Source of the DNA: Rosellinia necatrix
Lineage: Eukaryota; Ascomycota; Sordariomycetes; Xylariales; Xylariaceae
Assembly (NCBI GenBank): GCA_021209875.1
Contig: JAGYVD010000004.1
Span: 62,001-126,000, forward strand
Direction: 5' to 3'
DNA length: 64,000 nucleotides
Part shown: one piece after another, positions 3,150 to 52,695 of the stretch
Position numbering within the stretch: the first letter of the stretch is position 1
Layout of the letters: each line of letters begins with the position of its first letter
Made by a program: the position numbers and the translations under genes
The notes under the pieces: generated by a model
Told to the model about the DNA's origin: nothing
The model's database searches: none
Seen by the model: the letters and a program-made list of their open reading frames with translations, nothing else

Positions 3150-3151
3150 TA

Positions 3152-5362: not shown

Positions 5363-5454
5363 TAAACCTCATACTAAAGAAACTGGCCGGGAAGGCTATC
5401 AGCCACCCAAAGCGGCACATATAATATAGGGCTGAAGGTGCATTAATACATCAC

Positions 5455-13018: not shown

Positions 13019-13076
13019 AGGCTGGGGACCCCAGTCCCTTGGCTCCTTATGCTCATGTTAGCCATAGTGTAGTTAG

Positions 13077-17287: not shown

Positions 17288-19073
17288 TTATAGCATATCG
17301 TTACCTAGATCACCAGTATAGATCTGACCAGGACGCCAGATACGCGCTCCGCCCTCTAAATTTTCATAATCAATATGTTAGTGAGCTCACAAATAATAAG
17401 AGGGTTGACGGGAAATGGTAAGAAGTCTGAGCAGCTGCGCGGCGCCCCAGAACATTGACCGAGAGTACAGATACTAGATCGACCTCGAGGACATCAAAAT
17501 AATTACGTACCTAACATAGCTTCTCGCCAATGTGCCATCAGTCCCTGGGTGCGCGATAATATAGATATCGGTAGAATAAACTCGGGGGGGAATCCGCTAA
17601 TCACACTATCAGCACAAGCAGTAGAGGAATGAAGGATGTGTGAAATAGGAGACAACGTACAGCGCCTTGTATGCCAATGCCGCGTAAAAATCCGCATTTG
17701 GACGGAGTTTCCTTGACGTGAAGTACTCATCTTGGGAGGCTTGACGGTCTAGCTCGAAAGCAACCCGAAGTAGAGGGTCCTGTGATACCTCGGCGGACAG
17801 TTCATCGAGAATGTCGCGGATGAAAGTGAAACGAGGGTCGGTTACACGATAGACACGATGGCCGTAACCATAAAGCCTCTCTTTACCGGCTCTAACACGC
17901 TCCAGTTTAGCTGGCACGTCATCGACAGTGCCAATTTCCTGGATTTGTTTATATGCGACTTCAATGGCGCCACCATGTAAGGGCCCGTACAGGGCGCAAT
18001 ACGCCGATGTAACACATGAGATGACGTCCGGGAGCGCTGAAGCCGTGTGCAGGAGCGCCGCTGTCGAGCATGTCATTTCGTGGTCTGCGATAGTGGCCCA
18101 CAGGCGCTCAAAGACGTTGACATAGCGCGGGTTTGGTACGCCCGTCTGCTCATCTACGAGGCCGACCATAAGCAGGAAGTTCTCAATGTACGAGAAGTCA
18201 GTGCGAGGGGGCGTGAAGGTGATACCCATGTGGTGACAATATGATGCGGCCGTGATTGCCGACAAACTTGACATCACTCTTATAATCTGCTCATCAACGC
18301 GCTCTGGCTGCCCCATGTACAGGTTCTGAGCAGCATGGGCCGGAATGGCATCCATGTCACAAGATTGTAGGGCAGATAAGCCAGCAATCATCATGCCAAT
18401 AATTGATCCATTTTTCCTATCAGCAAAGCTTTTGGGTTAGTTGTCCATGTGTAGGCATATATGGCGGGAAAAATATGAGTTTTTCATATTGCTTACGGGA
18501 ATGAACGGATGACCTGGAAAACCGAGTCATCTGGGAGTGGGACACTATTCAGCTTCTGCTGAAACTTGGCCTTCTCTTCCGGTGTTGGCCATTTCCCCCA
18601 GATGAGAAGATGGGAGATCTCGGTGAAATCTTTTTTCCCAACGATATCCTGAATTGAATAGCCGCGGTAGTAGATTTCGCCCTTGAGGCCGTCACTAGTA
18701 GAGTCGTTAAAAGGGTGTATGACAGCGACAGAGAGAGAGAGAAATTCGGGATGAGATTGAAGTGGGGTAAGAAGCAATTAAATCATTTATAGTCCCAAGC
18801 TTACATGTATGTAATGCGACTCTCGCTCACGACCGTGTTTGAAAAGCCAGGATCGAGGACACGTAGTCCTTGCTGGTTCTGGTATTCCGGGTGGTCCACG
18901 TCCTCTGGCGCCTTGAAACTTTTCAGTTCGTTCGCACTAATAGCATTTTTTTTAATAGGGATAGCCTGATACTGTCCCGTCCGACTATCGATAACATGCA
19001 ACACATTATGTAGTGCTTTTTGGCTGTTTCCGTTGCCGTTAGAGGCTGTAGTGCCGTTCGTAATACTAGGCAT
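17288..19073 (-). CDS. Citrate synthase-family enzyme (putative alkylcitrate synthase)
   Basis: Five exons (19073-18805, 18694-18497, 18416-17661, 17596-17511, 17355-17288) join in frame into about 458 aa. All four introns are GT-AG with preserved phase; the last is 155 nt. Catalytic residues of citrate synthases are present: His303 in GPLHGGA, His342 in GYGHRVYR and Asp398 in NADFYAAL. ITYIDGLKGEIYYRGYSI marks the small conserved N-terminal block, and the C-terminus reads ARIWRPGQIYTGD. The first residues are Ser/Asn/Thr-rich without Arg, so no mitochondrial presequence is evident, unlike the primary citrate synthase. The gene is divergent from FAS alpha with about 595 bp between starts. By analogy with known alkylcitrate clusters I infer condensation of a fatty acyl thioester with oxaloacetate. 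The acyl length is not readable from sequence. Confidence 0.88.
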
Positions 19074-19668
19074 GGTTGGGAAGAATTGGCAATATATTTT
19101 CAATACTCACATATATAATTATCAAGTTCAAAGCCTATCATATTAGACGAGAGTCAATTTTGCTTCTTATAAATGAACGTAGTACTTCCGAAGTGTTCCT
19201 TGTGGCAGTTTGCTCTTCCCGGAGCTCTATCGCGTTGTGTGCTGCCCGAGAGCCCTTCATGAGTGGTTTCGGAATCGGCGACCGAGGCCGAAACATGGCA
19301 CACGGGAATGCCAAGGCTCCCCGGTGGCACTAGCTTGCATAATATCCCTCAATGTACAAACTTCCGGACACCTACGCGCCTCTTCGTTTCTCGGTGCTGC
19401 AAATCCCGAGAAAGTCCATGTGGATTAACTCCCTGCTCGGTGCTGCAGCCGCACCGCGGTATCTATGGCCTCGGACTAATTTTCGAGGCACTTAAACGTC
19501 GCAAGCTACCTTGAAAACTAGCGTACAGATGCAATTAACCTAACTTATTCCCCCATTGCTGTTATATCCAGTTCATCATTCGCATCGTGCGGGAACACTT
19601 AAACGCTCCATCCTTGATATTTACAATTATATTACGTGTGAGGAATTCAATCATCTTCAGAGGTGATC
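19074..19668. promoter_or_regulatory. Bidirectional promoter, citrate synthase / FAS alpha
   Basis: These 595 bp separate the two divergent start codons. A symmetric element TTTCGG-N15-CCGAAA lies at 19267-19293, with an internal GG-CGA-CC symmetric about base 19280. CGG triplets in inverted orientation are the usual contact of Zn2Cys6 regulators, and one such regulator is encoded at 27.1 kb. The octamer GGCCTCGG occurs at 19467-19474 and, on the other strand, at 19282-19289. It also occurs in the FAS beta promoter. The regulatory role is inferred. Confidence 0.45.
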
Positions 19669-22600
19669 ATGACACAAGTACATCCTTCGTCTCTACCTAG
19701 ACATAGCCAGGGACTACCTAGTAGTCGGGATATAGCCCATAAGCTCCTTATAGAACTTTTAACGTTCGTTCTGGTTTCCTTTTTCCCGACTGTGCCCCGT
19801 TATCATCTACTAACTAATTTCTAGGCACCAGTTCGCATTTCCTGTCCAATGGCGAGTAAAACAATGCTTGTTCTGTTCATTTAACGGTACTAACCGCTTT
19901 TTATCAGGATTGACACCCAGAAAGAGTTCCTGGACAATGAAAAACATGTTCGACGCTTCATTGAGATTGGACCGGCGAAGGTTCTAGCGACTCTAGCTAA
20001 GAAGTCGGTAGATAGGAGTGTTGGTGAAAAAGACATGTTACATTCTGTCAACCGAGAGTTCCTCTTCACCGGCGACGAAAATGATTTTAGGAAGATTGCC
20101 TACGAATATGAGGGCGAAAAGAACCGGCCATCCGATACCTCGGAGCCGAAAAATTCCACACCAAAGCCAATATCAAACGTTCCAGAGCCCGTAAAGAGAC
20201 CTGCGGACCCCTTTTTACCTCCGCCAGCGTCCCGTGCCCAGGTAGTTGTGCCCGACGTCGACTTGCTGCCGACAGATGTGATAGTAGCAATTGTTGCACA
20301 GAAATTTAGAAAGGCATTCGATGAGATCCCAGTTGAAACATCAATACGCTTGCTCTCCGGTGGTAAGCCTACACTACTCACAACGCCTAGTCATGACTAA
20401 GAAATTGCTTAATAGGTAAATCTGTTCTTCAGAATGAGATTATAGGTGATCTTGCTGCTGAGTTTGGGGACCTCCCCGAAGGCAGCGAGGATTGGAATCT
20501 TGATGCGCTAGGGGCGAATCTTATTTCGGCGTTTTCCGGGAAGCCGGGTAAACAAATGGGAAAGCTCATTGAGCGGCTATTCGCGTCCAAGATGCCAGGA
20601 GGGTTTTCTCGAGCCGATGCGCACAACTACCTAGAAATGACTTGGGGGTTAGACACCAACCGGCGGGCAGCCGTTCTTTGCTGCTGCGTTACAATGGAAC
20701 CGCCAACTAGGTTATCAGAAATAGAACAAGCCCATGCGTTCATCGACACGGTGGTTACCCGGTATGGAGCGCAGGCTGGAATTTCGCCTCAGATGAGATC
20801 TGCACATGAGATTACAGTACAGCCGAGTGCGGCCATACGCCCGGTCGACGAGGCGAGTCTTGAAGCCATGAAGAAAGATCAGAATGCGTTTCTATATAAA
20901 CAATTCCAGATCCTCGCACGTCATCTTAACATCGAGAAGGTAGTTGGAAATGGCAGTGACCACGTGGCATCCGAGATAGAGAAGCAGGAGGAGGTTGAGG
21001 TCTGGCGAGATGAACTAGGCGACGAATTTCTTGCTGGCGTCCAAGGTGTTTTCAGCCCTCTCCAAGAGCGGCGTTATAAATCATGGTGGAATTGGGCCCG
21101 AGAAGACCTCTCACGTTTATTGAATACCACACCTTCAGGGGAAGCCTATCAAAAAATCTCAGCAACTCGGCTTCAGGCGCTCATCAATCGATGGTCTTCC
21201 ACACTCGAGGATATGTTAATCCATCATTCCAAAGCGGGGGCAACTTCGGACACAGCGAGGCACCTGCTCTCCTATAGACCAACCGCGCAAAACACACCTC
21301 CTGTCTTTCGTTACTGCCAAAAGGCCTTAGGACCCCGAACAATAATCGATGACCAAGGGCAACTGACATACACAGAGGTCCCTCGGAAACAATACCCAGA
21401 CTCAGAAATCCCTATCGGCTACTCTAACCTTTTACGATCAGCAGCAACTAACAACAAGCCATTTGTCAACTTGAGGAAGCAGGCGCATGAGGGGTGGGAG
21501 TTCGATGTGCATCTTACGAATACGTATCTTGACATACTATCCGCCGCAGAGGGCCCCAACGGTTTAAACTTTTCTAACAAAACCGCACTAGTCACCGGCG
21601 CTGGTCCCGGTTCAATTGGTGCAGAGATCGTATGTGGCCTTCTTGCTGGCGGCGCTACAGTTATTGTGACCACTAGTAGGGCGCCATCAGCGGCGGCGAA
21701 ATTCTTTCGACAGATGTATAAGGATTCAGGCGCTCGAGGGTCCGAGCTAATTCTTCTGCCATTTAACGCCGCTAGTAAGAAAGATTGTGAGGCGTTGATG
21801 GCACACATTTACAGCAAAAGCGGCCTTGGGTTAGACCTCGATTTTATCGTACCATTCGCTGCTATTCCTGAAGCTGGACGTCAGCTAGACGGCCTCGATG
21901 GTCACTCGGAGCTCGCTCACCGTGCCATGTTGGTCAATGTGGAGCGGCTAATCGGTCTTGCTGCTCAAGCCAAGGATCGCCAAAAGATCAGGGGTCGGCC
22001 GGCAACCGTTGTTTTGCCCCTCTCACCTAACCACGGCGATTTTGGAGGCGATGGCTTATATTCCGAGTCGAAGTTGGGCTTGGAAACTCTCTTTAGTCGT
22101 TTTCATTCGGAGCGTTGGTCAGCCTATGTCTCCATTATTGGTGCGGTGATCGGATGGACCCGAGGGACTGGCCTCATGAGTGCCAACAACATCGTGGCGG
22201 AGGGCATTGAAGACCTTGGTGTGCTCACCTTTGCACCGACCGAGATGGGATTGAATATCCTAGCGCTTCTCTGTCCCCCCATTTTATCGTTGGCCGATGT
22301 AAGCCCCATTTATGCTGACCTTAGTGGCGGGCTTCTGGGATTCAAGGATTTTGAGAAAATATCTGAAATTCGCAAAAAGATAACTACGAAGCGACGGGTG
22401 CGAAGAGCGTTGGTCGCTGAGCGGATCAAACAAGAAGCGACGCTTAATGGCACGTCGCCAGAACTAAAGAATAACCAAACCCCCAAACCGACCCGGGTGC
22501 GCTCGAACATCCGACAAATGTTCCCGAAACTGTCCGATCACGCATCCATGACCGTAGATGTGGAAAAGCTAGTTGGCGCTGTGGACCTCAGCCGGACTAT

Positions 22601-24689
22601 TGTGATCACCGGCTTTTCGGAGCTTGGGCCGTGGGGGTCATCCCGAACCCGCTGGGAAATGGAAAAGTCTGGCCAACTGAGTCATAATGGTCTCACGGAG
22701 ATGGCGTGGATAATGGGTTTGATTGCACATTTCGACGGGGTTATTCAAGGGAAACCTTATGTCGGGTGGGTGGACAAAGAGACGTCCGAGCCAGTGAACG
22801 AAGCAGATTTTCGGGCCAAATATGAAACCCATATAATGAATCACGCAGGGATCCGTGTTATTGACCTCGAGCGTTTAGATGGATACGATCCGTCGCGCAA
22901 AGAGTTCTTGCACGAACTGGTCGTCGGCGACGATTTGCCGCCCTTCGAGGTTTCGGAGCACCTAGCCAAGGCGTTCAAGCTTCGACACGGGGATAAAGCT
23001 ATCATTTCTCCGAAGCCAGGAATGGATCCGGATACATGGATCGTAACCGTCAAACGCGGCGCAACATTTCTGGTTCCGAAATCAATCCCGTCCGATCAGT
23101 TCGTAGCTGGTCAGCTGCCCAGCGGATGGGATCCAGCTACCTACGGTATCCCGGAGGATATAGTTGCACAGGTTGATCCAATCACGCTGTACGTTCTTTG
23201 CTGCGTCTGCGAGGCCATGTACAGCGCTGGCATCCAGGACCCTTACGAGCTCTATCAATACATCCATGTTTCCGAACTCGCCAACTGTGTCGGTACAGGT
23301 GTAGGTAGCCTTACGGCTGCACGCGCCATGTACCAAAAGCGGTATCTCGAGAAATCCGTGCAGAGTGACATCCTTCAGGAGACCTATCTCAACTCCATGG
23401 CAGCCTGGACAAATATGCTCATTTTTGGGGCAGCAGGCCCAATCAAGACGCCGACAGGAACTTGTGCCACGGCAGTAGAATCTCTTGATGCTGCGTGTGA
23501 GGCCATCCTATCCCGCCGTGTCAAGGCCGCACTAGTGGGTGGTGTAGATGACTTTGCTGAGGAGATGTCTCATGAGTTTCAGAACATGAAAGCCACTAGC
23601 AACGGTAAGGACGAGACTACCCGAGGCTTCCTACCGTCGGAGATGTCTCGTCCGATGGCAAGCTCCCGCGCGGGCTTCATGGAGTCAGCAGGCTGCGGAG
23701 TACAAATCGTTATGACGGCAGAGTTGGCATTGGAAATGGGGCTTCCAATATATGGAATTGTGGCCTACACGCAGTTAGGGGGAGATGGGATCGGCCGGTC
23801 AGTGCCAGCCCCCGGTCAAGGCATCCTGACAGCGGCGCGAGAGGACACGTCTGCAGCACAATCACCCCTTCTAAGCCTACCATACCGCCGAGCCGAGCTG
23901 CAGAAGGACATGGCCGAGATAGATCGTTGGCGTCGCTCACGACTAGAGACGACGATCTCTAACCCGGACGAAACGGCTGACGCGCGGATCATCGAGGCGG
24001 CAGCGAACTGCCGAAAACGCGACGCACAGTGGATGTGGAACGGCAATATTCGGCAGCTTGATCCTCTCCTGTCCCCTATGCGAACCGCACTAACACCTTG
24101 GGGCCTAACAGTCGACGATATCAGCGTCGCCTCCTTCCATGGCACATCGACGAAGGCGAATGACAAGAATGAAAGTCAAGTTATTAATCAGCAAATGAAG
24201 CACCTCGGCAGGAGCAAGGGTAACCCCTTGCTAGTGATCTGCCAGAAGTACTTGACGGGCCATCCCAAGGGCGCCGCGGGAGCATGGATGCTCAACGGTT
24301 GTCTCCAGGTTCTCAATACAGGTATAGTCCCGGGCAACCGTAACCTCGATGACGTTGAGCCGGCGCTCGAGGCCTTCGAGCATCTGGTATACCCGTCGGA
24401 AACAATTCAGGCAGACGACATCAAAGCTTGCATGTTGACCTCATTTGGCTTCGGCCAGAAAGGAGGCCTCGTCATCCTGATCTCGCCACGCATGCTATTC
24501 GCAGCCGTAACACCGGAGCAGTATGGGGACTATCGACAACGCGTCACCACGCGCCGTCATCGAATCGACCGGGCCTTCCAGCTAGCCATGATGCAGAATG
24601 CCGTCTTCAAGGCCAAAGACGAAGGGCCGTGGCCGGATTCCCGCAACTTGAATTTGCTAGAACCGCAGGCAAGATTACCTCGAGTATAG
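19669..24689 (+). CDS. Fatty acid synthase alpha subunit (ACP-KR-KS), secondary-metabolism type, lacking PPT domain
   Basis: Four exons (19669-19763, 19825-19851, 19908-20362, 20416-24689) give about 1616 aa. Exon 2 is only 27 nt, and intron 2 (19852-19907) fits only as a GC-AG intron: the joined reading ELLTHQFAFPVQWIDTQ matches the start of fungal FAS alpha, while the nearby GT donor leads to a stop. The ACP domain carries LLSGGKSVLQNEIIGDL with the phosphopantetheine Ser at 195. The ketoreductase has TGAGPGSIG near residue 587. The ketosynthase has Cys1209 (PTGTCATAVES), His1434 (FHGTSTK) and His1475 (GHPKGAAGAW). The protein stops about 140 residues after the last His, so the C-terminal phosphopantetheinyl transferase domain of primary-metabolism FAS (about 1850-1890 aa) is missing. 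It partners with the beta subunit at 35.5 kb. Confidence 0.92.
19852..19907 (+). other. Probable GC-AG intron in FAS alpha
   Basis: The donor is TG|GCGAGT, the branch region is TACTAACC at about 19888-19895 and the acceptor is ATCAG. Use of the GT two or three bases further on would shift the frame into an immediate TGA. Only the GC donor restores the conserved VQW-IDTQ reading. Confidence 0.7.
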
Positions 24690-27126: not shown

Positions 27127-29729
27127 ATGGCGTGCGCCCAGCGAGGGCGTCGTTGCAGCCAGGCTGCAAATGTTGCAGACTATCACAGCAACAGTGACAC
27201 TAGCAGCAATAAAAGCAACCCCAACACAACCGCCAACACCAGCATAACTGGGGGTTCAAGCCGTGATACCACGAAACGACAACGGTCCCGCAACGAAGAC
27301 AACCTCCCAGCGGCCTGTGATCAATGCAGGTCCAGGAAAGTTCGCTGTGATCGTCAGCAACCGGAATGTTCCAACTGCCGAAAAGCCGCCGCCTTCTGCA
27401 GTTGGTCAAGCACATTTAGGCGTGTGAATCACACCAAGCAACTCCGAGATGATTTCACCAGTGTCATGGACCGCCTCGACGAGGTGCATCAGACACTTAA
27501 CCAGTTAACCAATATGACTCGAGATATCGTGGCTAGGCCGTGTTGCCATGATGATGCCTATATTTCAGGTATCACTACCGGCAGTAACCGCAGCACGAAC
27601 TTAAATACAGCTGCAATAATTACGACCGCAAGCAATTCACCATCAAGGACAGCCGCGTTAGCCGCCATACGAGCCGGTTTCGAGAACAATAATCATTTCA
27701 TTCTTCCACATTCTAATGATACAATATTCGACCTACCCAATAATAAGCGCGGCTTGACAGACAATAGCTATTTCCCACGTGAAAGCTCTACTCATAACAA
27801 CGGCGAACAGAGTGTCATCGGCTCACCAGATTCTTTGACGTTAATACAGGGCATAGCAGGACAGATTTCTGGCATGCTGCGACATCATGATGGAAGGGAA
27901 GCTTCCCACGACGTCCGAGACGCTGGTACGCGAGTCGCTCTGCATCGCCTGCGAAATTCGTTCCCCTTTGACAGGCCGTGCCATGACTCAGATGTTATCG
28001 ATGATGGCCGCCCTGTCTCCACGCCACCTCGTTTAATGGTGGATTTATTTATCGAAAGCTTTCTCTGCAGCTTCAATGCCTCCTTCTCGATATTTGACGA
28101 GGAAGAGCTTCGCAACGCCGTGGATGCACATTATGCTGCGGAGCAGCCAAATGACAACAGCCCATGGGCCTTAATTTTTACGAATATTGTGGTATTGGGT
28201 CTTGGACTCGAAGCCCAAACTGCGAGCGCCTCTCGGTCACATACCAAAAGCATGCATCATGAGTTAATGGCCTCCTTTCTTCGCAATTGCGATCGCGCTA
28301 TTGCCAATCTTGATTCATTCACGCGCCCTTCGGTTGTTAACATTCAAGCCCTATTAACTCTGGTACGTGGCCCTTTGCCTTCATTGCCTGAACGTCCTAT
28401 TTGGATATGTAGGCGGAGTAGAATGATAAACTGACATTTACTACGGACTAGGCCCTCGTAGGTCGGGAGTTCTATGGGAATACCATATTTGAGAAAGCCT
28501 GCCAAACTGCTTGCCACCTTGCAAGTATCGTGGGACTCCATCGGTCGAAACCTTCTCGAGGCGATATACAAAGCCCAGACATAAGTGATCGACAACGACT
28601 TTTTCGGGCGTTATATACTATTGACAAATATCGTACATTTCTATCTGGCCATCCATGCGATTTATACCTCTTCGACTCTGAAGCGCAACCTAATAGTGGT
28701 GCCGAGGAGTCGTCACCCGTTATACAATTAGACTCAGCATTCTATGAAATGATGCGTATTTGGGAGGAGATATACCTTACCCTTTATTCAACACGAGCGT
28801 CACTCGCTAACATAAATATCCGTTTGCAACGGGTTTCAGCCATGAGCGAGCTGGCAACATCTTGGGCCCAACAGCATAGCGGACTCGTTATATCGTCCGA
28901 TTCTGCTTTTGAATCGGGTACCGAACCTCGACGGCTCGAGCTGACATATTGCTATCACGTCACTCAAGTTCTAATACTGCGATGCGGTGGAAAGGACCAT
29001 AAAAAGAAACTTCTTGATCATGCACGCGCATGTCTGAGAGTGATGGCCACCGTCATCAACATGCCCGCCACCGTCCTGAGTCTGGCGTCACTAGCTCGTA
29101 TGCTGCAACACTACCCTATTGCCTCATTCACCGAGTTACTTCGATTCCATCTACTCAATCTGAGTAGGGATATACCTCTAGACGACCTAGTAAACAAGGA
29201 CGTCGAATTACTCCGGCATATCAATAATTCTATAAAGGCCATGCAACATCCTGACTTACCCCAAACATACCTTAGCCGACTAGGGGTAGGTATAAATTGG
29301 TTATTAGGAGTCCTTGAAGCCATCACAAATACCACAAGCGGGTCACCATCTGCATCTGATGGCAAAGCGGGGCATACATCTACGGCTAACGCCAACGCAC
29401 CGATTTCTCGCCCGTCTAGCAATGCCTCTCCAGTGGCCGTGATGCCGACCGTTGGTGATAGTGTCTGGCGTCAACGGACTAGCCGCGGCTTCTCACTCCC
29501 TTCGTCGATATCGTCGTCTTCAGAAAGGGGGCATCGGTATCTACCGAATGAAGCCGAGTTGCCATCTTTCGAAGCGCCCACTCCATTCCCCGACCCCGTA
29601 AGTATAAATATGGGTCGAAAGGCATCTTCTAGCGGTTGTCTTTACCTAGATGGGCCTCAATTCGATACGGCCATGATTGATGACGAAAGTTGGGGGGTAG
29701 ATCTCTGGAAAGATGTATTCCCCTCATAG
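27127..29729 (+). CDS. Zn2Cys6 transcription factor (putative cluster regulator)
   Basis: Two exons (27127-28362 and 28452-29729) join in phase 0 into about 837 aa; the 89-nt intron runs GTACGT to ACTAG. The DNA-binding motif lies at about residues 64-91: ACDQCRSRKVRCDRQQ, then ECSNCRKAAAFC, with spacing C-x2-C-x6-C-x6-C-x2-C-x6-C. A heptad-like segment follows (DDFTSVMDRLDEVHQTLNQL), suitable for dimerisation. A middle region (VDLFIESFLCSFNASFSIFD, later VGREFYGNTIFEKACQTACH, then RLFRALYTIDKYRTF) matches the fungal-specific regulatory domain. The N-terminal 50 residues and a segment near 520-580 of the second half are Ser/Asn-rich. Lying between FAS alpha and the decarboxylase gene, it is the likely pathway activator. 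Confidence 0.9.
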
Positions 29730-31205: not shown

Positions 31206-32777
31206 ATGGTAGCCCCTGCACCCAACGATGGCCATCCACAGGATCCGGCTTTGGATGAGAACAATGGGGTAACTTCTCAACTTTCACAATGGATCACGAA
31301 TCTTGAGTGGGATGAGATACCTTCGGAAATACGCGAGCGTGCGAAGCATCTAATCCTAGATGGTATCGTCAGCGGGCTTGTTGGCGCTCGAGTGCCCTGG
31401 TCTGAAGAATGCGTGAACGCTGTTCTGGAATTTGAGCCACCAGGATATTGTACTGTCATCGGATATGAGAAGGTGAGACTCACCGTATCCTACTTGTTAT
31501 ATTTCGCGTCTGTTAACATCCGATGTGAACAGGCCTTGGGTCCTCTGGCTGCAGCTGTGTTAAATGGTGCCTTCATTCAAGCCACCGAACTCGATGACTA
31601 CCACAGCGGGGCACCGCTTCACTCAGCTGCGGTCGTCTTACCGGCCCTATTCGCTGCAGCCCAAGTAATCACCAGACCAGCAGGTGAGGGGCAAAAGGGC
31701 GCCGCCGGACGTGTCTCGGGGCGCGATTTTCTTCTCGCAGCTGTTGCTGGATTCGAGACCGGGCCTCGAGCAGGCCTCGGCTGTGGAGGCACTGACTTAC
31801 TTAAACGCGGATGGCACTCCGGTCCTATCTTCGGCTGCCCTGCCGCAGCCGCCGCCTCATCAAAGCTATTGGGTCTCTCAGCCGACGACGTAGAGTCCGC
31901 AATCGGAGTTGCATGTACCCAGGCCGGTGGCCTCATGGCAGCTCAATACGAGGGCATGGTCAAACGTGTGCAACACGCCTTTGCGGCACGCAACGGTCTC
32001 TTCGGGGCCTTGCTCTGCCGCAAGGGCTATGTCGGCATCAAAAAGGTGTTCGAGCGCCGCTATGGTGGGTTCTTGAGTATGTTCAGCCAGGGAAATGGAC
32101 AGACGCCACAATATGATTCCCGTAGGGTGGTGGAAGAGCTGGGAAGCACTTGGCAGTTGATGAATATCCGAATCAAGTTATACGCCTGCGTCGGTGGTTG
32201 CCATGGCCAGATCGAGGCACTGGCGCAATTGCAGGCGACATACCCGGAAAGATTCGCGCCCGAGAACTTGACACGGATAGAAAAAATAGAGGTTTACCTG
32301 TCCGGTGCTATCTTTGCCCATGATGGATGGGCCCCGGAAGAGAGACCCATGACTGAGACTGGCGCGCAGATGAACGCCGCCTATATCGGTGCGGTGCAAC
32401 TGATAGATCGCCAAGTTCTCTTGGCGCAATTCGCGGCCGATACTCTCAATCGCGACGAAATCTGGAACCTGGTTTACAAGACAACTTGCTACCACGACAC
32501 TCACTTCGACAAGCCTCATCACGTATGCGGCGCTCGGGTTGTGGTAACGTTTGACGACGGCACTCGAGTCGAGGAAACCGTCAACATGCCAAAAGGGTAC
32601 GATCCCCCTATCACTGACGAGGAGATCCGGATGAAATATCGCCGGCTTGCTGCTTCGGCTATCGATCAAGACCGAATGGAGAAAATTGAACAGTTGGTGG
32701 TAGGGTTAGAATCTCTTGAGGATGTGTCTGAGCTCCTGGATCTCCTACCCGCCCCAACGAGGCGAGTTTTAGGATAG
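31206..32777 (+). CDS. cis-Aconitate decarboxylase-like enzyme (MmgE/PrpD family)
   Basis: Removal of an in-frame 60-nt intron (31473-31532, GTGAGA to AACAG) leaves about 503 aa. That is close to the 490 aa of the Aspergillus itaconate enzyme CadA, which it resembles along its length (SEIRERAKHLILDGI, ARVPWSEE, FIQATELDDYHSGAPLHSA). Residues corresponding to the known decarboxylase active site are present: Thr107, Asp110/111 and His113 in ATELDDYH, His184 in RGWHSGPIFG, Lys233 in MVKRVQH and Tyr306 in IKLYACVGG. CadA converts cis-aconitate to itaconate. Beside a citrate synthase homologue and a dedicated FAS, I infer an alkyl-aconitate substrate and an alkyl-itaconate product. A dehydratase role cannot be excluded. 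No targeting signal is evident. Confidence 0.9.
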   Translation: MVAPAPNDGHPQDPALDENNGVTSQLSQWITNLEWDEIPSEIRERAKHLILDGIVSGLVGARVPWSEECVNAVLEFEPPGYCTVIGYEKVRLTVSYLLYFASVNIRCEQALGPLAAAVLNGAFIQATELDDYHSGAPLHSAAVVLPALFAAAQVITRPAGEGQKGAAGRVSGRDFLLAAVAGFETGPRAGLGCGGTDLLKRGWHSGPIFGCPAAAAASSKLLGLSADDVESAIGVACTQAGGLMAAQYEGMVKRVQHAFAARNGLFGALLCRKGYVGIKKVFERRYGGFLSMFSQGNGQTPQYDSRRVVEELGSTWQLMNIRIKLYACVGGCHGQIEALAQLQATYPERFAPENLTRIEKIEVYLSGAIFAHDGWAPEERPMTETGAQMNAAYIGAVQLIDRQVLLAQFAADTLNRDEIWNLVYKTTCYHDTHFDKPHHVCGARVVVTFDDGTRVEETVNMPKGYDPPITDEEIRMKYRRLAASAIDQDRMEKIEQLVVGLESLEDVSELLDLLPAPTRRVLG

Positions 32778-33211
32778 GAGCGAAATGCATGGGCGATAAA
32801 AAATAGCTTTGATACTAGCCAATAACTAAAGTTCGGTCACGGTATTACATCAGCTCGCATGTAGCGTTACATATGTGAGTAAATAATAAACTGGTGAAAT
32901 ATTGGTTTCCAGTGCCTAATTCACAGCACTTCAAGTATACTATGATCTGCCTATTAGTTGCTGATTATGCCGTGACACGTGCCTCCTCAAACCACCGATC
33001 TTTAAATGTGGCGTGGTTATTTCCATGTTCATGCGATGAGTTGGGTCAAGTTACTAGTCATATGCATGTTTTTATTTAATTTACTATCACAGGTCATGGT
33101 ATAAATACTATGGTGATGTCTCATAATAGCTAACAAAGACTCTAAGTACTTTGAGAGAAGTCAGCTACAACTAGATATCAGCTTAGCTATGGTGCAACTT
33201 AGCCAAATCTA
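32778..33211. other. Convergent intergenic region
   Basis: These 434 AT-rich bases separate the 3' ends of the two MmgE/PrpD genes. No gene or clear repeat is seen. Confidence 0.5.
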
Positions 33212-34763
33212 CTAAGGCTGGAATAAGTCCATGAATGTGCTAGCCGGGGTGTCCTCAAAACCTGAGCTATCTATCAAGTCAACGATGGTGTTGACCCTGC
33301 TCTCCGGAAGCCCAAGCTTAAAATTGCGCAGTGTCTTCTCTCTCACAAGAGGGAGCGTTTTCTCATGTCTAACATGGCCAGCGGGAAAGTCAACGCGGGC
33401 ATCTAGCTTCGTACCGTCGTGGAATGTGATCTCAATTTGATTCGCGAGGCTGCGGATGTCCTGGTTATGGTAATCCCTTGTGAACTCTTCTTCTTCCGCC
33501 ATGGTGATTTTGGACCGGAGCTCATCGACCCGGGGATCGCTGCTCCAAGGGCTATCGTCTTGATAATCCTGGACCTCGATGACGTCGCCCTTGAGGAGCA
33601 TCACGGCGATAATGTATCGCATGCAGTGGTCGCGGTCCGCGTAATTGTGAAGCGGACCTTGCTTATTTATGATGATCATAGAGGCATCCGTAGTCTTAAC
33701 ATGGATGCCCTTGATGTCGCGCATAGCATCGAGCCCGCGTTCTTGCATCTGCTGATAGAGAATTACGGTCGCATCGACCGAAGTTAGGGCATGACCCTCC
33801 ACAGCCATGACCTTGAACAAGACGTTCTCCATCACCCAGCTGCCGAATGGCCGGGGGAGCTCAAATTTCTGATCGCGATAGAGCACTTGGTAGAACCCCC
33901 ACCGTGGCGCGGTCAACACCGTTCGTATTCCGGGTTGCCCAGCACGAGCCAATGTCGCTAGATGTACCGCGCGCATGCATGCATCGCCGGCAGCCCAACC
34001 CTTCCGGGGCCCAGCATTTGGGGCTTGACGATAGACACGCAGAGGATGGCCGTCAGCCCAAGCGTGAGAGACAGCCGCCCGCGCCTGGTCTTTGCTGAGA
34101 CCCATGAGCCATGAGACTACGGCGGTGGACGCTACCTTGACCAAAATAACATGGTCAAGTCCCACCCGATTGAATGCATTGCGGATTTGGAAGCAGCCCT
34201 GGATCTCATACGCTTTAACCCCTGCTAGTAAAATCTGCTTTACGGTAATGACAGCTGAAGCGTCTTGACGTTTAAGTGCGTTTCTGGTTAGGATATCCGC
34301 AGTAGCCAGAATAGCGCCAAAATTGTCTATAGTGATCGGTTGTTAGCTTAGTTGCTGCAGGGTTAATATAGAAAACCAAGTTGGGAGCCCGATGAGGCCA
34401 CGTACCGGATGGATGCCCCCATTCGGCCCCGGGGAACGCGTCGTTGTGATCAAGGTAGCGTATCATGGCGCCCATGTCGAAGGCGCCTTTGAGAAGGTCT
34501 AGCGAGTACTCTGTGCCCGGAGGACGGAAACCGTCGGGGATAGACGAAGAAGTCGGCCATTGCGGCCCAAGTAAGTCTCTGCATTCCTTGCTCGTATGGA
34601 AGCTTTCAATTGCCGATCCGATAGCGTCTAGCAAGGTCGCTTTCGCGCGAGTCCACGCAGCGGGAGAGGGATCGGTATAGTCATAAGCATAGTTGACTAT
34701 TAAGTCAATCACCTCGTCATATGCTTGCTCGGCGTTATTATCGGGTGCCGGTGCTCCTCCCAT
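33212..34763 (-). CDS. 2-Methylcitrate dehydratase-like enzyme (PrpD; putative alkylcitrate dehydratase)
   Basis: Two exons (34763-34406 and 34326-33212) join into about 490 aa; the 79-nt intron runs GTACGT to CTATAG and the junction spells GHPSDNFGAILATADIL. The start at 34763 is the first ATG after an in-frame stop. Conserved features of the PrpD branch are the segment IRYLDHNDAF, GHPSDN, and HALTSVDAT further on. This branch differs clearly from the decarboxylase-like neighbour, so the two are not a recent duplication. PrpD dehydrates 2-methylcitrate to 2-methyl-aconitate. Here I infer dehydration of the alkylcitrate made by the 17-19 kb synthase. No mitochondrial presequence is visible. 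It shares a promoter region with FAS beta. Confidence 0.9.
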
Positions 34764-35499
34764 TTTCAACTATGCGATGGTAAGAGTAATCGAAGTGAAA
34801 GAGGGACACAGACGTGGCAATGCGGGCTAGGAATTTTCCATCTTCTCAAAGGATGCAATCCTCAAGTCGGGGATTGGTATGTTTATGCTGCGGATGTCAT
34901 CACTATCAACGGCCGATAACCACGCCTGTGAGCCAAGGGATGTTGGCTGTTCCGACGGTACAGGGCCCCAATAGCGTGCGATCGCTTCTCGGCCTCCGAG
35001 CGCGAGATTTTGACCGGTGCCTGATTTCGGGCAGATGCCGACGGATACGACCAGAATACCGGCCTCGGTGCACAGTAATGACAGGCGAGCGGTGGGAAGA
35101 TCTCGGGTATGTCTTAGGGTGGTTTTTTTGTAAGACGCGATCTCATCGGTTAGTTACTTTAGCGGCAGCGCATCATGGCTTCGACGGCAGGTATTACATT
35201 ACCCTTTGAATATATTCCATCTAAAGTAGCTAACCAGCCCTAATGAAATACACCCCATACAGGCGGCTATTCCGAAACATATTCGTGGACCAGCTGTGTA
35301 GATCAACTTTGTGCTTCGATCGTAATGGGCATGAAGTGGCCCATATCCACTTGCAACATATCAACGGTTCCAGTTCATAGCGCTCAAGGCAAAGGCTCCC
35401 TGCGCTGACATATTCGTCTGATCTCACTCTCATGCTCGGGTAGCATCCATTCTCAAGCGAGCCAGACGTGCACAAGTATAGCCGTGTTGGAACGACAAA
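34764..35499. promoter_or_regulatory. Bidirectional promoter, PrpD-like dehydratase / FAS beta
   Basis: These 736 bp lie between divergent starts. TTTCGG at 35025-35030 faces CCGA at 35038-35041 (spacer 7), and GGCCTCGG occurs at 35061-35068 with a near copy GGCCTCCG at 34991-34998. The same octamer and the TTTCGG half-site occur in the citrate synthase/FAS alpha promoter. This suggests, but does not prove, shared control by the Zn2Cys6 protein. Confidence 0.45.
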
Positions 35500-38400
35500 A
35501 TGGCCTTAGCCATTAGCTCTAGGAATAGTGTATGCTCGACACCGTTCGAGCTAATGAGCTTCACGCCAACTACCCCAGAGACATCCGCCTCTCCGGTTAC
35601 TGAACTCCTCGTTCCTTTCACCATCAAATCCGGCGAGGCCACTTACAGCTTCATATTGGAAAGCCAACATGCACAGTACCTCAACATTTATCGAGATCAG
35701 TTTCTCAGCATCGGCGCCGAATCCATAGCGGAAGGGTCTGGTTCGGTAGCTGAGTCAACTGCGTCGCTCATCCTGCGGTTCATCCAATTCCTGTCTGACC
35801 AGAATGTACCAGTTAGATGGCTGGCATACCTGTTCCGCAGCGCCCGGGCTGAGCTCGACCATGACGATATACACACTTTCATTAGCCAGCAGCGTGGAGG
35901 TGCCGAGGCACGCAAAAGTATGCTGCGAACTTTGGTCAGTCTGCTGGACTATTCCCCGAAACCCGCCTCCCGTCTCCCTGGTGCCCTGGTCTCGGCTGTT
36001 ATGAAGAAGGAAGCATCGATTTTGTTAGCCTTCGGTGGTCAAGGAGCAATAAATCCATCTTGTGTCGACGAGTTAGCGGAGCTCTACACCGTTTATCGCC
36101 CTCTTATTGAGCCTCTAATCTTCATAATCGATCCAATCCTTAAGAGCTTATGTCGCCACCCTGGGACGTCATACTTTTACCAAGATCGCGAGATTAAGTT
36201 ACGCGAATGGCTCGAAGGCCGCGAATCCCGGCCAGAGACGGCTTTCATTTCCGCAGCAGCGACAAGTTTTCCGATCATCGGCCTCATCGATCTGGCTCAC
36301 TACTGCATTATGTGCAGAACATTAGACAAGACCCCGGGCGAAGTAGGACAACTACTCTTCGGCGTGACTGGTCATTCCCAAGGAATTATCATCGCTGCCG
36401 TGGTAGCGCTATCCGATTCGTGGGACTCCTTCTTTCACCATGCTAGATGGGCAATTGAGCTCCTCTTTTGGCTGGGTTACCATTCCCACCGAGACGCACC
36501 GCAGCCAGCGCTTGACATGGCCGCCGTCGGCGACAGCATCCGAGAGGGTGAAGGCCAACCGTCCCATCTGCTTGTAGTCCGTGGGCTACAAGAGGAAAAG
36601 CTGAAAGATCTACTAACTAGTTGTAACCAGCACCTTAAATCTAATGAGCACCTGTACTTGGCCCTCAAAAACGGACCTCAGAACTACGTGATTGCAGGCA
36701 GTCCGCGCTCTCTTCGGGGTCTGACTCTCCGCCTACGGAAAATGCGAGCTCAGCAAGGCTCCGATCAGATACGTATCCCACACAGTCAACGACGACCAGA
36801 GGTCCAATGTCAATTCTTACCAGTCAGCGCGCCTTTCCATTCCGACCATCTTGTTCCTGCCGCCGATCGGGTCAAAGAAATCTTTGTGGAAACTTCAGCG
36901 TCTCCCAAGTCTACTGATTTGCGGACGCCCCTGTTCCACACAGAAGCCGGACTCGAAATGCGTGGAGTAATGAACACGGAGTCCTCGCTCACCCACACCT
37001 TAATCGACGCTATCGCATCAAAGGGGGTAAATTGGCCCGCGTCCCTTCAGTTGGGTCAAGACAATTGTCCAACCCATTGCCTGGTATTTGGAGGTGGAAG
37101 GCTTAGCGATCTTGTCCATCGTGTTGTCGACGGCCGTGGGATCCGTGTCATTGACGGCACGAGTCTTGAACCATCTTCAACCACTATTGGAACGAAGGCA
37201 GATATTTTCACACCGATCTTAGAGCCGTGGCAGCTTACGACTCCATCGTGGAAAGACGCATACAGACCTAAGACCAAGAAATCCGCGGGTGGTCTAGTGA
37301 ACCTGGAAACTCGGTTAAGTAGGCTCCTCAAGACCCCGCCAGTGATTACGGCGGGAATGACGCCCACCACTGTCCATTGGGATTTCGTCTCCGCTATCAT
37401 TTGTGCGGGTTATCATGTTGAATTCGCCGGGGGTGGCTACTTCGATGCAGCAACTATGGAGATGGCCATCGAAAAGCTTGCCGCTAGTATCCCGCCCGGC
37501 CGCGGCATAACCATTAATCTTATATATGCTAGCCCAAAGACGCTGAGCTTCCAGATACCCTTGATGCGTCGTTTAATTAATCAGGGTATCCCTGTAGAGG
37601 GGCTTACGATCGGCGCCGGCATCCCATCTCCCGACATCGCGGCTGAATACATAGAGTCACTCGGAATCAAGCACATTTCTTTCAAGCCGGGATCCTCTCG
37701 GGCTATAAGGGAGGTAATTGCGATTGCTAAGGCGCATCCACTCTTCCCTGTAATCCTGCAGTGGACGGGAGGCCGCGGCGGAGGCCATCACTCTTGCGAG
37801 GACTTCCACGAGCCTCTTCTTGAGACATACGGTGAAATTAGGCGTTGCCAGAATTTGTATCTGGTAGTAGGCAGCGGGTTCGGGGATGCCGCAGGAGCTC
37901 TCCCATACTTTACAGGGGAGTGGGCGCTCCAGTTCGGGAGGCCTGCAATGCCTTGCGATGGAATTCTATTAGGAAGTCGGATGATGGTTGCTCGCGAGGC
38001 ACATACTTCTCCGCAGGCTAAGAGCCTCCTTATCCAAGCCCCCGGTGTCGAAGACGAGGACTGGGAGCGTTCTTATAATCAAGACGGTGAGAAATGTGGT
38101 GTTTTAACGGTAGTTTCTGAAATGGGCCAGCCCATTCATAAGGTGGCAACTCGGGCGGTTCGCCTATGGAAAGAATTAGATGACACCGTGTTCAGCTTAC
38201 CTAGAGCAGAACGTGTTCCCGCCCTCATGAGACGGAAACAAGAGATCATTTCGCGACTTAATTCCGATTTCGCTAAACCATGGTTTGGTGAGGACTCTAC
38301 CAGGAAGCCCGCAGATCTAGAAGATATGAGCTATGTTGAGGTGATTTCGAGACTGGTTGAATTGATGTACATTGACCATGAGAAAAGGTGGATCGACGCA

Positions 38401-41400
38401 TCTTATAAGGGTGTTGTTGACGATTTCGTCGAACGGGCATGGGAGAGACTAGGAGACGGGTCATGCCCAAGTAACTGGGACCCCTCAGTTCTTGACGAAC
38501 CTCAATCCGTGGGATCTCTTTTGTGCAGTGCCTTTCCGGATACCGCCTCTCAACTTTTGCACCCCGAAGATGTTCGATTTCTTATCAACGCCTGCAGAAA
38601 AGGAGGTCGAAAGCCCCCAAATTTTATTCTAGCATTCGATGAAGACTTTGAATACTGGTTTAAGAAGGATTCACTCTGGCAGTCCGAGGACGTAAACGCG
38701 GTATTTGGTGGGGATCCAGAACGTGTCTGTATCTTACAAAGCCCAGTATCCGTTCGCTATATCACGAGAGACGACCAGTCAGCGAAAGAGATCCTAGATG
38801 AGATCCACGAAGGTTTAACCAAGATGCTCGAAGGCAGCGAGGAACAAGTCATTGTCGTGCCGACTGGTGTGCCGAACGATTCCTCGTCTCCCCACGCGAG
38901 CCTCGACGAAGAAATAGGGGCGCCCATCGTTTTTCGAGCTTCCGAATCTTCAAACGCTCTCGCATGGGGGAAATACGTTGAACGATATGCCCTTCCCGCT
39001 ATCATGGCAGTTTTCTTCAATGCCAGTGTATTTACTGTATCCCCCGACAACTCTGTACGAAGCCAGCCTAACCCGTTTTACGACCTTGTCCCGCCCCGTG
39101 ATGGTTGGTCGGTACATTTAAGCCAGGATGGAAAGGAAGCGTTATTGGTTGATGAGAAAGATGATACAACACTAGCACGGTTCTTCTCGAGAGAGGGCAG
39201 GTATATCCAGGTATCTCTGTATCATCATGATGCAGTGCCCTCCATTCCAGCTGTTCTTGACTTAGAATGGGAATTCCAAGAGGCGACGACACGGCTCGTT
39301 GAAGTTTCGAAAGCGAGAGGCCAGAGTGTTCGGGGATTTTACGCCCAGCTATGGCTCGAGAGGCATGATGGGCTAGTCCCCGGCTGTCTAACAGATATCT
39401 TCCACAGCGAAGAGGTAATCTTGTCGCATCACTTGCACAACTCGCTTAATGTTGCTATTGCGCATTCATTTCGAGACACAGCGGTAGTCTACCACACGCC
39501 AAATATTGCGACTGAAGCCGCCGTAATCGCAGCTTGGGATGTATTGATTCATCCACTGCTCCTACCCGAACTTCAAATCGACTTGTTGCGTCTCGTGCAT
39601 CGCTCGATTGACATTGCTTATACTCCAGGGGCATCTCCCTTGCAGGTTGGCGATGCCATCCGCGCTACATCGTCCGTACGATCCATTTTGATAGAGCCTT
39701 CGGGCAAATCAGTGACGGTTGAGGCGCACTTAATACGACATGGACAGCGCGTGGTCACTATTGCTTCCGAATTCTTTATCAAAGGGAAGTTCACAGACTA
39801 TCACGCCACCTTCCAGCAGCATGACGATCCTAGCATCCAACTTCACATAGAAACGGATGAAGATGAAGCCGTCCTACTAGATCGCAATTGGTTATTTTTC
39901 GACGACACATCTCAAAGTTTGAAAGGCTCAAATCTTGTGTTCTGCACGGCTACGCGGATGATCCCCGAAGGCCCGTCGAGGTATGCCAGCATTAAAACGG
40001 AAGGAAAGATATACAATCAGCTATGGAATAAAACCCGTGTTCTCATCGGCACAGTTTCTTTTGAAGCAACCCACTGCCAAGGCAATCCTGTAACCGAGTT
40101 CCTCCGGCGCAAAGGAACCGTGATTGACGCCACGATCCCTCTGAAAAATCCAGGGTGGACAGGTGATTCAGAAAGAATCGCGACGATGCCACGGCAAAGT
40201 CAACTTTACTCCACCATCTCGAAAGATTGCAACCCCATCCATACCTCGCCGGTCTTCGCTGCAGTCGCCGGGCTACCTGGTACTATTACCCACGGCATGT
40301 ATATTTCCGCAGTTTGCCGCAAGGTCGTCGAAGAGCTTGTTGTAGCCGGCGATATAGCACGACTCAGGCGATTCACATCTTCCTTCGTGGGCATGGTTCG
40401 TCAAGGAGAACAGATATCTGTGGGGGTCACTCATGTAGCCATGCGGGAAGGACGAATGGTGGTCGAAGTCTCGGCACGCCTCGTTCAATCCGGCGAAGAA
40501 GTATTACGAGGCGAGGCTGAGGTTGAGCAACCCTCAACCACCTACCTTTTCACAGGGCAAGGCACCTCGTCAAAGGGCATGGGTATGGCGTTGTACGACT
40601 CTAGCCCTGTCGCGAGAGCTCTATGGGACGAGATGGACGCCGCTTTAATGAATCAATTCGGTAAGTAACGGATATAGAAGTAACCGTATCGGTTGAGGTA
40701 GTTTTGCTAACACTGAGAACTAAACGTAGGGTGGTCAATATTGGATCTCGTCAGGGAAAACCCCAAGGAACTCACCATTTACTTTCGTGGGCGCGAGGGG
40801 CGAAAAGTGCTCGACAGTTATCTTGCGATGAAAACAGAAGTAGTCTCCCCCGATGGGTCAACCCGACTTGTACCCGTCCTTCCCGGTCTAACGCCCTCAT
40901 CGACGTCGTATACCTTCTCTGACTCGCGCGGCCTACTGCATGCAACAGCGTTCGCGCAACCAGCGATTGTGCTGCTCGAAAAAGCCACCATGCAACACAT
41001 GCAAGCCAGCGGCCTCGTTCAGGACGGTGCCTCATTTGCCGGGCACTCCCTGGGTGAATACGGGGCACTGTACTCGCTCGCTGAGTTCGTTGAGCCCAAG
41101 TTGATGCTCAGCATTATTTTTTATAGGGGGTTGGTTATGCAATTTGCGGTCCAAAGGGACGAGGATGGGAATTCGGGCTACTCGATGGTTGCGGCCAACC
41201 CGACACGGGTTGGTAAATGTATGAAACCCCTGGTCCCCATTTGGCAGCACTGACTAATATGTTTCTGGATCTAGATTTCAATGAGGAAGCACTCCGACGA
41301 GTGGTTGATCTGATCAGCGAGCAAAGCGGAGAGCTCCTTGAGATTGTCAACTTTAACCTCCAAGACGAGCAATATGTGTGCGCTGGCCATGTGAGTATTC

Positions 41401-41892
41401 AGGAAATCATCGCCGTACGAATCAGGGACTCGCGCGTTTCTAACGATTGATTGCACCACACAGGTACGCAATATTCGCACCCTCACCGGAATACTGGACT
41501 TCTTGTCGGGGAAGGGCAAGGCGGGAGCAGACATGGTCAAAGAGTTGCTGGTGGCTGAAGATGGACTCGCATCGGCCATTGGACACGCAATATCCGCACA
41601 CGTAGCCCAGTCGCTGGCATTCCCGCTCGACATGGAACTGAAACGAGGAAAAGCGACAATCCCACTCGTGGGGATTGACATCCCCTTCCACTCAAAGCTC
41701 ATGCGTCCCGGTATCGCAGCCTACCGCAGGTTCCTACAGCAATGCATCAAAGCCGAGGACATACATCCCGAGAACATGATTGGGAGATTTACGCCGAACG
41801 TCACGGGTAAGCCGTTCTCGGTCGAAACATGGTATATCGAAGAAACTGCCCAGCGTACAGAGAGCGCTGTGCTGAAGGAATTAACTGCCTAG
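35500..41892 (+). CDS. Fatty acid synthase beta subunit (AT-ER-DH-MPT), secondary-metabolism type
   Basis: Four exons (35500-40660, 40730-41212, 41275-41390, 41464-41892) join in frame into about 2062 aa, the normal length for fungal FAS beta. Introns are 69, 62 and 73 nt, all GT-AG. Domains in order: acetyl (starter) transferase with GHSQG, Ser293; enoyl reductase from about residue 610 (VITAGMTPTTVHWDFVSAI, GLTIGAGIPSP, GGRGGGHHSCEDFHEP); MaoC-type dehydratase near residue 1577 (NPIHTSPVFAAVAGLPGTIT); malonyl/palmitoyl transferase beginning YLFTGQGTSSKGMGMALY with GHSLGEYGALYSL, Ser1827. The C-terminus is slightly short after GKPFSVETWYIEE. All catalytic landmarks I looked for are intact. 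It assembles with the alpha subunit at 19.7 kb, and the two are 11 kb apart, separated by the regulator and both MmgE/PrpD genes. Confidence 0.93.
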
Positions 41893-42771
41893 AGGGCGGG
41901 AACAGATTCGCTAGGGACCTGCCTCTGACTACTATAAATGTATGTTCTAGAAGAGCAGTAGAGTCATCAAATGAGCAGAGAGATACCCTGAAATGCATGA
42001 GTCTTGGGATGGGAGTCTCATCGGCGCAATGACCCCGAGGCGTACGGTTAAGTTCTTTGGATATGACATATGACAAGGGGGATTCGAGCTTTCATTTACG
42101 ATCATCTAAGCGAGCAATGCAATAAATATACCATGCAAACCACCTATTTACTCGATATAGACTAGCATCGACTCGCCATGTTTTAGTATGCATACAAGGT
42201 TCTGACTCAGATTATACTTGTAGATCGAAGTTATACACATACATACTGTCAACAGCATGGACCCTTTCCCGGGTTCGTTGATTAGACTTTAAAAGGGAAA
42301 AAAGCGCAGAGGCAAAACGCAAATAAACCATCAACAGGAACATTATATCCCATCACCGTTGAACTGTGGATTTGCGGCATCGTTGTTCCCGTATGCGCAT
42401 CAAGATATTCACAGTCTCTATATTCGCGTTTATAGAGTCTAACGCAACGGATACACGCCCCCTTTACCACAGACAAATTTAACGCGTCCCCGTCATGTCC
42501 CGGCCAATTAAAAGAAGCAGGCAAGAAGCAACCTGCAATGGTCACAACTGCGACGTGCCGGAGTATGTCGATCACGGCACATCTATACCGATCTCTCATC
42601 TACCAAACCAATTCCGCCCTCCGAAGCCACTGCTACACTCCCGGGGCAACACGGCTTACATGCTACATATGGATCCCCCGGCTCATTCGCCTCACCATAT
42701 GAGCAACCGCTGCCCCCAATCTCCCTCTGGTCGCTGCTACCACTGGGACCCTGGGGCCGGCATACATTCAC
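41893..42771. other. Intergenic region at the right border of the cluster
   Basis: No supported gene is seen. An open frame at 42495-42788 overlaps the next entry in another phase and has no recognisable domain. Confidence 0.45.

Positions 42772-52663: not shown

Positions 52664-52695
<32 letters not shown>

What the first reader, a model, noticed from the sequence alone, without database searches (positions are those of the whole stretch)
17288..41892. Candidate alkyl-itaconate biosynthetic cluster built on a dedicated FAS
Six genes that fit one route sit together: citrate synthase-family, FAS alpha, Zn2Cys6 regulator, cis-aconitate decarboxylase-like, PrpD-like dehydratase and FAS beta. Known fungal alkylcitrate pathways (for example sporothriolide) use the same logic. 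Here no P450, 2-oxoglutarate oxygenase, lactonising enzyme or transporter is visible, so the end product could be a simple alkyl-itaconic acid. This minimal gene set is unusual and possibly undescribed. Gene identities come from motifs seen here; the pathway order is inference.
Basis: partly seen in the sequence, partly recalled or inferred. Interest (0 to 1): 0.88.

Follow-up and report, generated by a model that had tools for sequence, protein, structure and literature searches.

The report
Known fungal alkyl-itaconate gene cluster
A six-gene cluster in the white root rot fungus (Rosellinia necatrix or a very close relative) looks intact and fit to build fatty-chain relatives of itaconic acid; it is real, but clusters of this kind, and this species' own copy, are already in print.

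Summary
All six genes are at the stated place, and each gives an uninterrupted spliced reading frame: alkylcitrate-synthase-like citrate synthase, FAS alpha, Zn2Cys6 regulator, aconitate-decarboxylase-like protein, PrpD-type dehydratase and FAS beta. Pfam scans of the gaps between them and of about 10 kb on either side found no P450, 2-oxoglutarate oxygenase, lactonase or transporter family. The pathway reading is well supported: acyl chain + oxaloacetate -> alkylcitrate -> alkylaconitate -> alkylitaconate. The claim 'unusual and possibly undescribed' is not. The window comes from Rosellinia necatrix or a near-identical strain, and Kuhnert et al. 2021 (PMC8403587) already list R. necatrix among Xylariaceae with a 'piliformic acid-type' cluster, a type lacking dioxygenase and lactonase genes. 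The same core makes hexylaconitic/hexylitaconic acids in Aspergillus niger (PMC7338620), and Apiospora arundinis has it with the decarboxylase in the cluster (PMC10999098). One thing I did not find in print (searches): in trees of two of its proteins, this cluster belongs to a Nemania/Rosellinia lineage separate from the Xylaria/sporothriolide one, and Nemania sp. FL0916 shows both. So 'piliformic acid' for Rosellinia is a guess from gene content, not from orthology.

The parts
17288..19073 (-). Alkylcitrate-synthase-like citrate synthase, 458 aa, 5 exons (19073-18805, 18694-18497, 18416-17661, 17596-17511, 17355-17288)
   Evidence: Pfam Citrate_synt 212 bits on the frame of exon 3; model without internal stop; named relatives among the best hits: Rosellinia necatrix 97%, Nemania 85-89%, Hypomontagnella monticulosa 76%
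19669..24689 (+). FAS alpha, 1616 aa, 4 exons (19669-19763, 19825-19851, 19908-20362, 20416-24689); no C-terminal phosphopantetheinyl transferase domain; second intron has a GC donor
   Evidence: Pfam Fas_alpha_ACP, FAS_I_H, KR, KS; alignment to solved FAS alpha chain 4v58 stops at residue 1703 of 1878; no ACPS match here but one in the other FAS alpha on C7; model
27127..29729 (+). Zn2Cys6 transcription factor, 837 aa, 2 exons (27127-28362, 28452-29729)
   Evidence: Pfam Zn_clus 40.9 bits; Fungal_trans 22.1 bits, just under its cut-off of 23; model; R. necatrix match 98% over 86% of the query, on a 99,336-base contig
31206..32777 (+). Aconitate-decarboxylase-like (HadA/SpoK-type) protein, 503 aa, 2 exons (31206-31472, 31533-32777)
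   Evidence: PDB best matches are cis-aconitate decarboxylases 7br9/6r6t; 498 of 503 residues identical to R. necatrix P0001; the three histidines aligned with the active-site ones of A. terreus CAD are kept at 119, 184, 352
33212..34763 (-). PrpD-type 2-methylcitrate dehydratase homologue, 490 aa, 2 exons (34763-34406, 34326-33212)
   Evidence: PDB best match 1szq 2-methylcitrate dehydratase, E 1.1e-103; TIGR02330 395.7 bits on the frame of exon 2 alone, under the whole-protein cut-off of 458; model
35500..41892 (+). FAS beta, 2062 aa, 4 exons (35500-40660, 40730-41212, 41275-41390, 41464-41892)
   Evidence: Pfam SAT, FAS_AT_central, Fas1-AflB-like_hel, FAS_meander, FAS1_thioest_ins, MaoC, Acyl_transf_1; model without internal stop

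Best explanation
This is the alkylcitrate (alkyl-itaconate) cluster of Rosellinia necatrix. The dedicated FAS alpha/beta pair makes a medium-chain acyl thioester, probably C8. The citrate synthase homologue joins it to oxaloacetate to give an alkylcitrate. The PrpD-type dehydratase removes water to give an alkylaconitate. The aconitate-decarboxylase homologue removes CO2 to give an alkylitaconate such as hexylitaconic acid or its double-bond isomer piliformic acid (that the two are isomers is recalled). The Zn2Cys6 protein switches the genes on. Shown here: gene content, open frames, family membership, conserved decarboxylase histidines, recurrence of the set. Inferred: chain length, step order, product, regulation. 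Because FAS alpha lacks its own phosphopantetheinyl transferase domain, its carrier domain must be activated in trans, by the stand-alone enzyme or the other FAS alpha found elsewhere in the genome (inference).
For: Domains and open models. The two MmgE/PrpD proteins split into decarboxylase and dehydratase. Histidines aligned with A. terreus CAD positions named in PMC11814083 (passages) are kept. Separate FAS, citrate synthase and PrpD-family loci exist elsewhere in the genome, so this set is dedicated. A decarboxylase and a citrate synthase of this family lie on contigs of the same stated length in 21 organism/contig pairs, my hand count over the best 120 rows of each. In A. niger the same functions make hexylaconitic and hexylitaconic acids: overexpressing akcR and hadA gave the acids, resolved by NMR (PMC7338620; abstract and sections 17 and 19 read; deletion of NRRL3_11763-11767 abolishing production is a section heading that I saw). 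A piliformic acid-type cluster in R. necatrix is stated in PMC8403587.
Against: No chemistry or expression data were seen for this fungus: the main text of the R. necatrix infection transcriptome paper holds none of the terms citrate synthase, fatty acid synthase, aconitate or polyketide (PMC6933693). The cluster is not on the same branch as the Xylaria rows; the citrate synthase of X. longipes, a piliformic acid producer by PMC7732752 (passage), is among those, so piliformic acid cannot be transferred by orthology.
Confidence: 0.88

Rival explanations
1. The product is an alkylaconitate or an anhydride (maleidride-like) rather than an itaconate, because the decarboxylase homologue acts on something else or is inactive.
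For: In the A. [quoted passage not shown] The structural family also holds an epimerase (IDS-epimerase).
Against: The decarboxylase homologue is open, lies inside the cluster, keeps the three aligned active-site histidines and differs from the R. necatrix database copy at only 5 of 503 residues.
Confidence: 0.08
2. The cluster makes an alkyl-itaconate of another chain length or double-bond position than the Xylaria cluster, since it belongs to a separate lineage.
For: Separate clade in both decarboxylase and citrate synthase trees; Nemania sp. FL0916 carries one copy of each clade in both trees.
Against: Gene content is the same as that described for the X. hypoxylon cluster in PMC8403587; branch position does not by itself predict chain length.
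Confidence: 0.3
3. The six genes are not one pathway but a chance neighbourhood of primary-metabolism duplicates.
For: No co-regulation data were available.
Confidence: 0.02

Closest known systems
Piliformic acid-type alkyl citrate cluster of Xylariaceae (Xylaria hypoxylon; R. necatrix named; PMC8403587)
   Same: FAS, alkylcitrate synthase, dehydratase and decarboxylase without dioxygenase or lactonase; same species reported
   Different: The window's citrate synthase and decarboxylase fall in another clade than those of the Xylaria rows, X. curta's decarboxylase excepted; no row named X. hypoxylon was in the best 120 citrate synthases or decarboxylases, so X. hypoxylon itself was not placed
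Aspergillus niger alkylcitric acid cluster akcA-akcB-akcR-akcC-akcD + hadA (PMC7338620)
   Same: All six functions; product class shown by overexpression and NMR
   Different: hadA is unlinked in A. niger; a 541-aa A. niger homologue is 53% identical to the window's decarboxylase (that this row is hadA is inferred)
Sporothriolide (spo) cluster of Hypomontagnella monticulosa (as described in PMC8403587; the primary paper Tian et al. 2020 was not seen)
   Same: FAS, citrate synthase (76% identical), dehydratase, decarboxylase (348 of 501 aligned residues identical); that these two rows are spo proteins is inferred from organism and shared contig length
   Different: spo adds dioxygenase and lactonase genes; none was found here
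Apiospora arundinis alkylcitric acid cluster (PMC10999098, passages)
   Same: akcA-D-like genes, a regulator and hadA in one cluster; hexylitaconic acids C and G annotated in its metabolome
   Different: Other family; decarboxylase 327 of 502 aligned residues identical
Oryzine cluster of Aspergillus oryzae (PMC6162547, passages)
   Same: FAS alpha/beta, citrate synthase, 2-methylcitrate dehydratase, aconitate decarboxylase
   Different: 18 predicted genes, with dioxygenase, lactonases, transporters and an acyl-CoA ligase

Membership tests
FAS-dependent alkyl citrate cluster (akc/spo/piliformic type) | Dedicated FAS alpha and beta next to a citrate synthase homologue | tested here: met
   separate FAS and citrate synthase loci elsewhere
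FAS-dependent alkyl citrate cluster (akc/spo/piliformic type) | PrpD-type 2-methylcitrate dehydratase homologue | tested here: met
FAS-dependent alkyl citrate cluster (akc/spo/piliformic type) | Citrate synthase homologue groups with alkylcitrate synthases rather than other citrate synthases | tested here: met
   Within the 43-row clade that holds the H. monticulosa, Apiospora and Aspergillus rows on contigs shared with a decarboxylase, cut off by a branch of 2.25 from five more distant rows. Caveat: which rows are alkylcitrate synthases is inferred from organism and contig, and the function of the five is not known to me
Alkyl-itaconate branch (hadA/spoK-type decarboxylase) | Cis-aconitate decarboxylase homologue with active-site histidines | tested here: met
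   residues from PMC11814083 passages
Sporothriolide/oryzine type | 2-oxoglutarate dioxygenase and lactonase genes in the cluster | tested here: not met
   No such Pfam family in 7,001-17,287, in the gaps between the genes, or in 42,001-51,990; an MRJP domain at about 48.1-48.7 kb lies beyond two housekeeping-like genes
Xylaria piliformic acid cluster, by orthology | One clade with the Xylaria cluster proteins | tested here: not met
   AU test p 0.002 (decarboxylase) and p 0.004 (citrate synthase); with the second Nemania copies added p 0.0001 and 0.00003; the groups were named after seeing a tree
Piliformic acid cluster, by product | Makes piliformic acid | not testable with these tools
   No chemistry available
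Any of the above | Co-regulation of the six genes | not testable with these tools
   No expression data held

The most novel reading that the evidence does not exclude
The Rosellinia/Nemania cluster is a second, independently evolving Xylariaceae lineage of alkylcitrate cluster, lumped so far with the Xylaria piliformic-acid cluster by gene content, and it makes a different alkyl-itaconic acid (other chain length or double-bond position).
Probability: 0.3. Interest if true: 0.3.

Novelty: already known. Interest (0 to 1): 0.15.

Why it matters
It gives gene models for an apparently intact six-gene alkyl-itaconate pathway in a crop root-rot fungus, and it warns that 'piliformic acid-type' in Xylariaceae covers at least two lineages that can occur in one genome. 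The product of the Rosellinia/Nemania lineage is worth one LC-MS experiment; otherwise the finding is ordinary.

Tried and rejected
Considered and rejected: a broken cluster (all six models are open); an undescribed minimal set (refuted by PMC7338620, PMC8403587, PMC10999098); Apiospora as the source organism on genome size, dropped when the decarboxylase proved 498/503 identical to R. necatrix; hidden tailoring genes in gaps or flanks (none at E 0.001). From 51,990 to 64,000 only three large reading frames were scanned; 1-7,000 was scanned at one frame (Tannase); 41,893-42,000 and the strands opposite the six genes were not scanned. Led nowhere: expression evidence in PMC6933693; text searches for Rosellinia with itaconic acid (one unrelated paper) and Dematophora with piliformic acid (two papers already seen). 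No structure prediction was run because sequence matches already settled the families. Tree rows were hand-picked named fungi out of the best 120 hits listed: 46 and 32 for the decarboxylase, 47 and 31 for the citrate synthase, each plus the window.

Full report
What is there. The finding's coordinates run exactly from the citrate synthase stop codon (17288) to the FAS beta stop codon (41892). Six genes lie between: citrate synthase (-), FAS alpha (+), Zn2Cys6 regulator (+), aconitate-decarboxylase-like (+), PrpD-like dehydratase (-), FAS beta (+). Pfam supports each; the regulator's Fungal_trans match is just under its cut-off, its Zn_clus match is over it. Removing introns at GT-AG sites, plus one GC-AG site in FAS alpha, gives open models of 458, 1616, 837, 503, 490 and 2062 residues. 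The nearest GT donor in place of that GC donor throws FAS alpha out of frame; I take the intron as a normal but rare GC-AG intron, which is an inference.

The two MmgE/PrpD proteins are different enzymes. The 31206-32777 protein matches PDB cis-aconitate decarboxylases (best E 6e-23) and no PrpD chain within the threshold. The 33212-34763 protein matches 2-methylcitrate dehydratases (best E 1e-103) and TIGR02330 at 395.7 bits from its second exon's frame alone, against 19.2 bits for the other; both are under that model's whole-protein cut-off of 458. PMC11814083 (passages) says His103 and His159 of human ACOD1 are kept in A. terreus CAD and that its His336 is predicted to be the third active-site histidine. 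The aligned histidines are present here at 119, 184 and 352 (row P0071, a 'synthetic construct' cis-aconitate decarboxylase that I take for A. terreus CAD with one extra residue; the first two also follow from the alignment).

Dedicated enzymes. The same genome has other loci for the PrpD/MmgE family (2), citrate synthase (4) and the FAS beta helical domain (1, on C7). The FAS alpha carrier domain is also found on C7 and C4. A phosphopantetheinyl transferase domain is found only in the C7 FAS alpha frame and in one 291-aa frame on C1. These searches score only the best candidates, so counts are lower bounds. The cluster FAS alpha has no such domain, and its alignment to the solved 4v58 chain stops at residue 1703 of 1878. 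Its carrier domain must therefore be activated by another protein.

Surroundings. Six-frame Pfam scans with X at each stop found HET and DnaJ domains on the left. On the right they found a methionine-aminopeptidase-like gene (about 43.9-45.1 kb), Abhydrolase_2 (about 45.7-46.4 kb) and MRJP (about 48.1-48.7 kb), all on the minus strand. The gaps between the six genes and 16,991-17,287 had no Pfam match in six frames. No P450, 2-oxoglutarate oxygenase, lactonase or transporter family was seen at E 0.001; a gene of short exons could still be missed.

Which organism. The decarboxylase is identical to a Rosellinia necatrix protein at 498 of 503 residues. The citrate synthase and regulator have R. 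necatrix matches of 97% over 91% and 98% over 86% of the query, and all three records give a contig of 99,336 bases. The genome held here is 49,113,603 bases in 12 contigs; the R18 assembly of R. necatrix is 49.1 Mb in 11 contigs (PMC10796067, passages). So it is R. necatrix or a very close strain.

What is known. PMC7338620 (abstract, sections 17 and 19) ties a five-gene core akcA, akcB, akcR, akcC, akcD plus unlinked hadA of A. niger to hexylaconitic and hexylitaconic acids, and says the decarboxylase gene is in the cluster in A. oryzae and A. flavus. PMC10999098 (passages) reports the set with hadA in the cluster in Apiospora arundinis and two annotated hexylitaconic acids. PMC8403587 (section 27 read whole) describes an X. 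hypoxylon cluster like sporothriolide's but without dioxygenase and lactonase genes, assigns it to piliformic acid, and names R. necatrix among species with piliformic acid-type clusters. Since one search found only one FAS beta besides the one on C7, the cluster they mean is very likely this one (inference; they worked on another assembly and I did not see their coordinates). The finding is therefore already known in kind and in this species. Searches for R. necatrix with alkyl citrate and Nemania with alkyl citrate and gene cluster returned only that paper.

What may be new. Trees of the decarboxylase and citrate synthase put the window with R. necatrix, Nemania, Xylariaceae sp. AK1471 and, for the decarboxylase, Xylaria curta and Hypoxylon argillaceum. 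This clade is separate from the one holding the other Xylaria rows and H. monticulosa. Nemania sp. FL0916 has one decarboxylase and one citrate synthase in each clade, each pair on contigs of one stated length (140,591 and 914,971). Forcing this clade together with the Xylaria rows is rejected (AU p 0.002 for the decarboxylase; p 0.004 for the citrate synthase; smaller still with the second Nemania copies added), with the caveat that the groups were chosen after seeing a tree. The two trees disagree on where Apiospora belongs (next to this clade for the decarboxylase, with Xylaria for the citrate synthase), so the genes of one cluster may not share one history. The published 'piliformic acid-type' label for R. 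necatrix came from a cblaster search, that is from gene content, so its product is open.

Against my reading: I saw no product or expression data. Regulators 52-63% identical to the window's occur in 11 rows named Xylaria, one of them X. hypoxylon, while no decarboxylase or citrate synthase of this clade is listed for those species; I cannot explain this. It could mean that X. hypoxylon has a cluster nearer to this one than the lists show, which would weaken the two-lineage reading of its product. Co-location was judged by equal contig length only, with Apiospora marii as an exception.

Verdict. The novelty claim is wrong; interest is low.

Noticed in passing
G000:C4:3496101 (loci L018, L023, L024): A third FAS alpha-like frame with no phosphopantetheinyl transferase match and no FAS beta helical-domain match on C4; neighbouring frames look like P450s and an FAD-linked oxidase by eye only. 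Possibly another metabolite cluster.
   Followed up: partly
window 19852-19907: FAS alpha second intron appears to use a GC-AG donor; the nearest GT alternative breaks the frame.
   Followed up: partly
window 2001-6000: AT-rich stretch of about 30% GC against about 50% around it, typical of a mutated repeat region in fungi (recalled).
   Followed up: no
Protein rows P0244, P0246, P0248, P0250, P0253-P0259: Regulators 52-63% identical to the cluster regulator in 11 rows named Xylaria, whose species show no decarboxylase or citrate synthase of the same clade among the listed hits.
   Followed up: no
window about 48137-48697, - strand: MRJP beta-propeller domain gene 6 kb beyond FAS beta, past two housekeeping-like genes; probably unrelated to the cluster.
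   Followed up: no
window about 7.2-7.6 kb (+) and 13077-15773 (-): Two HET (heterokaryon incompatibility) domain matches on the left flank, the second near its cut-off.
   Followed up: no
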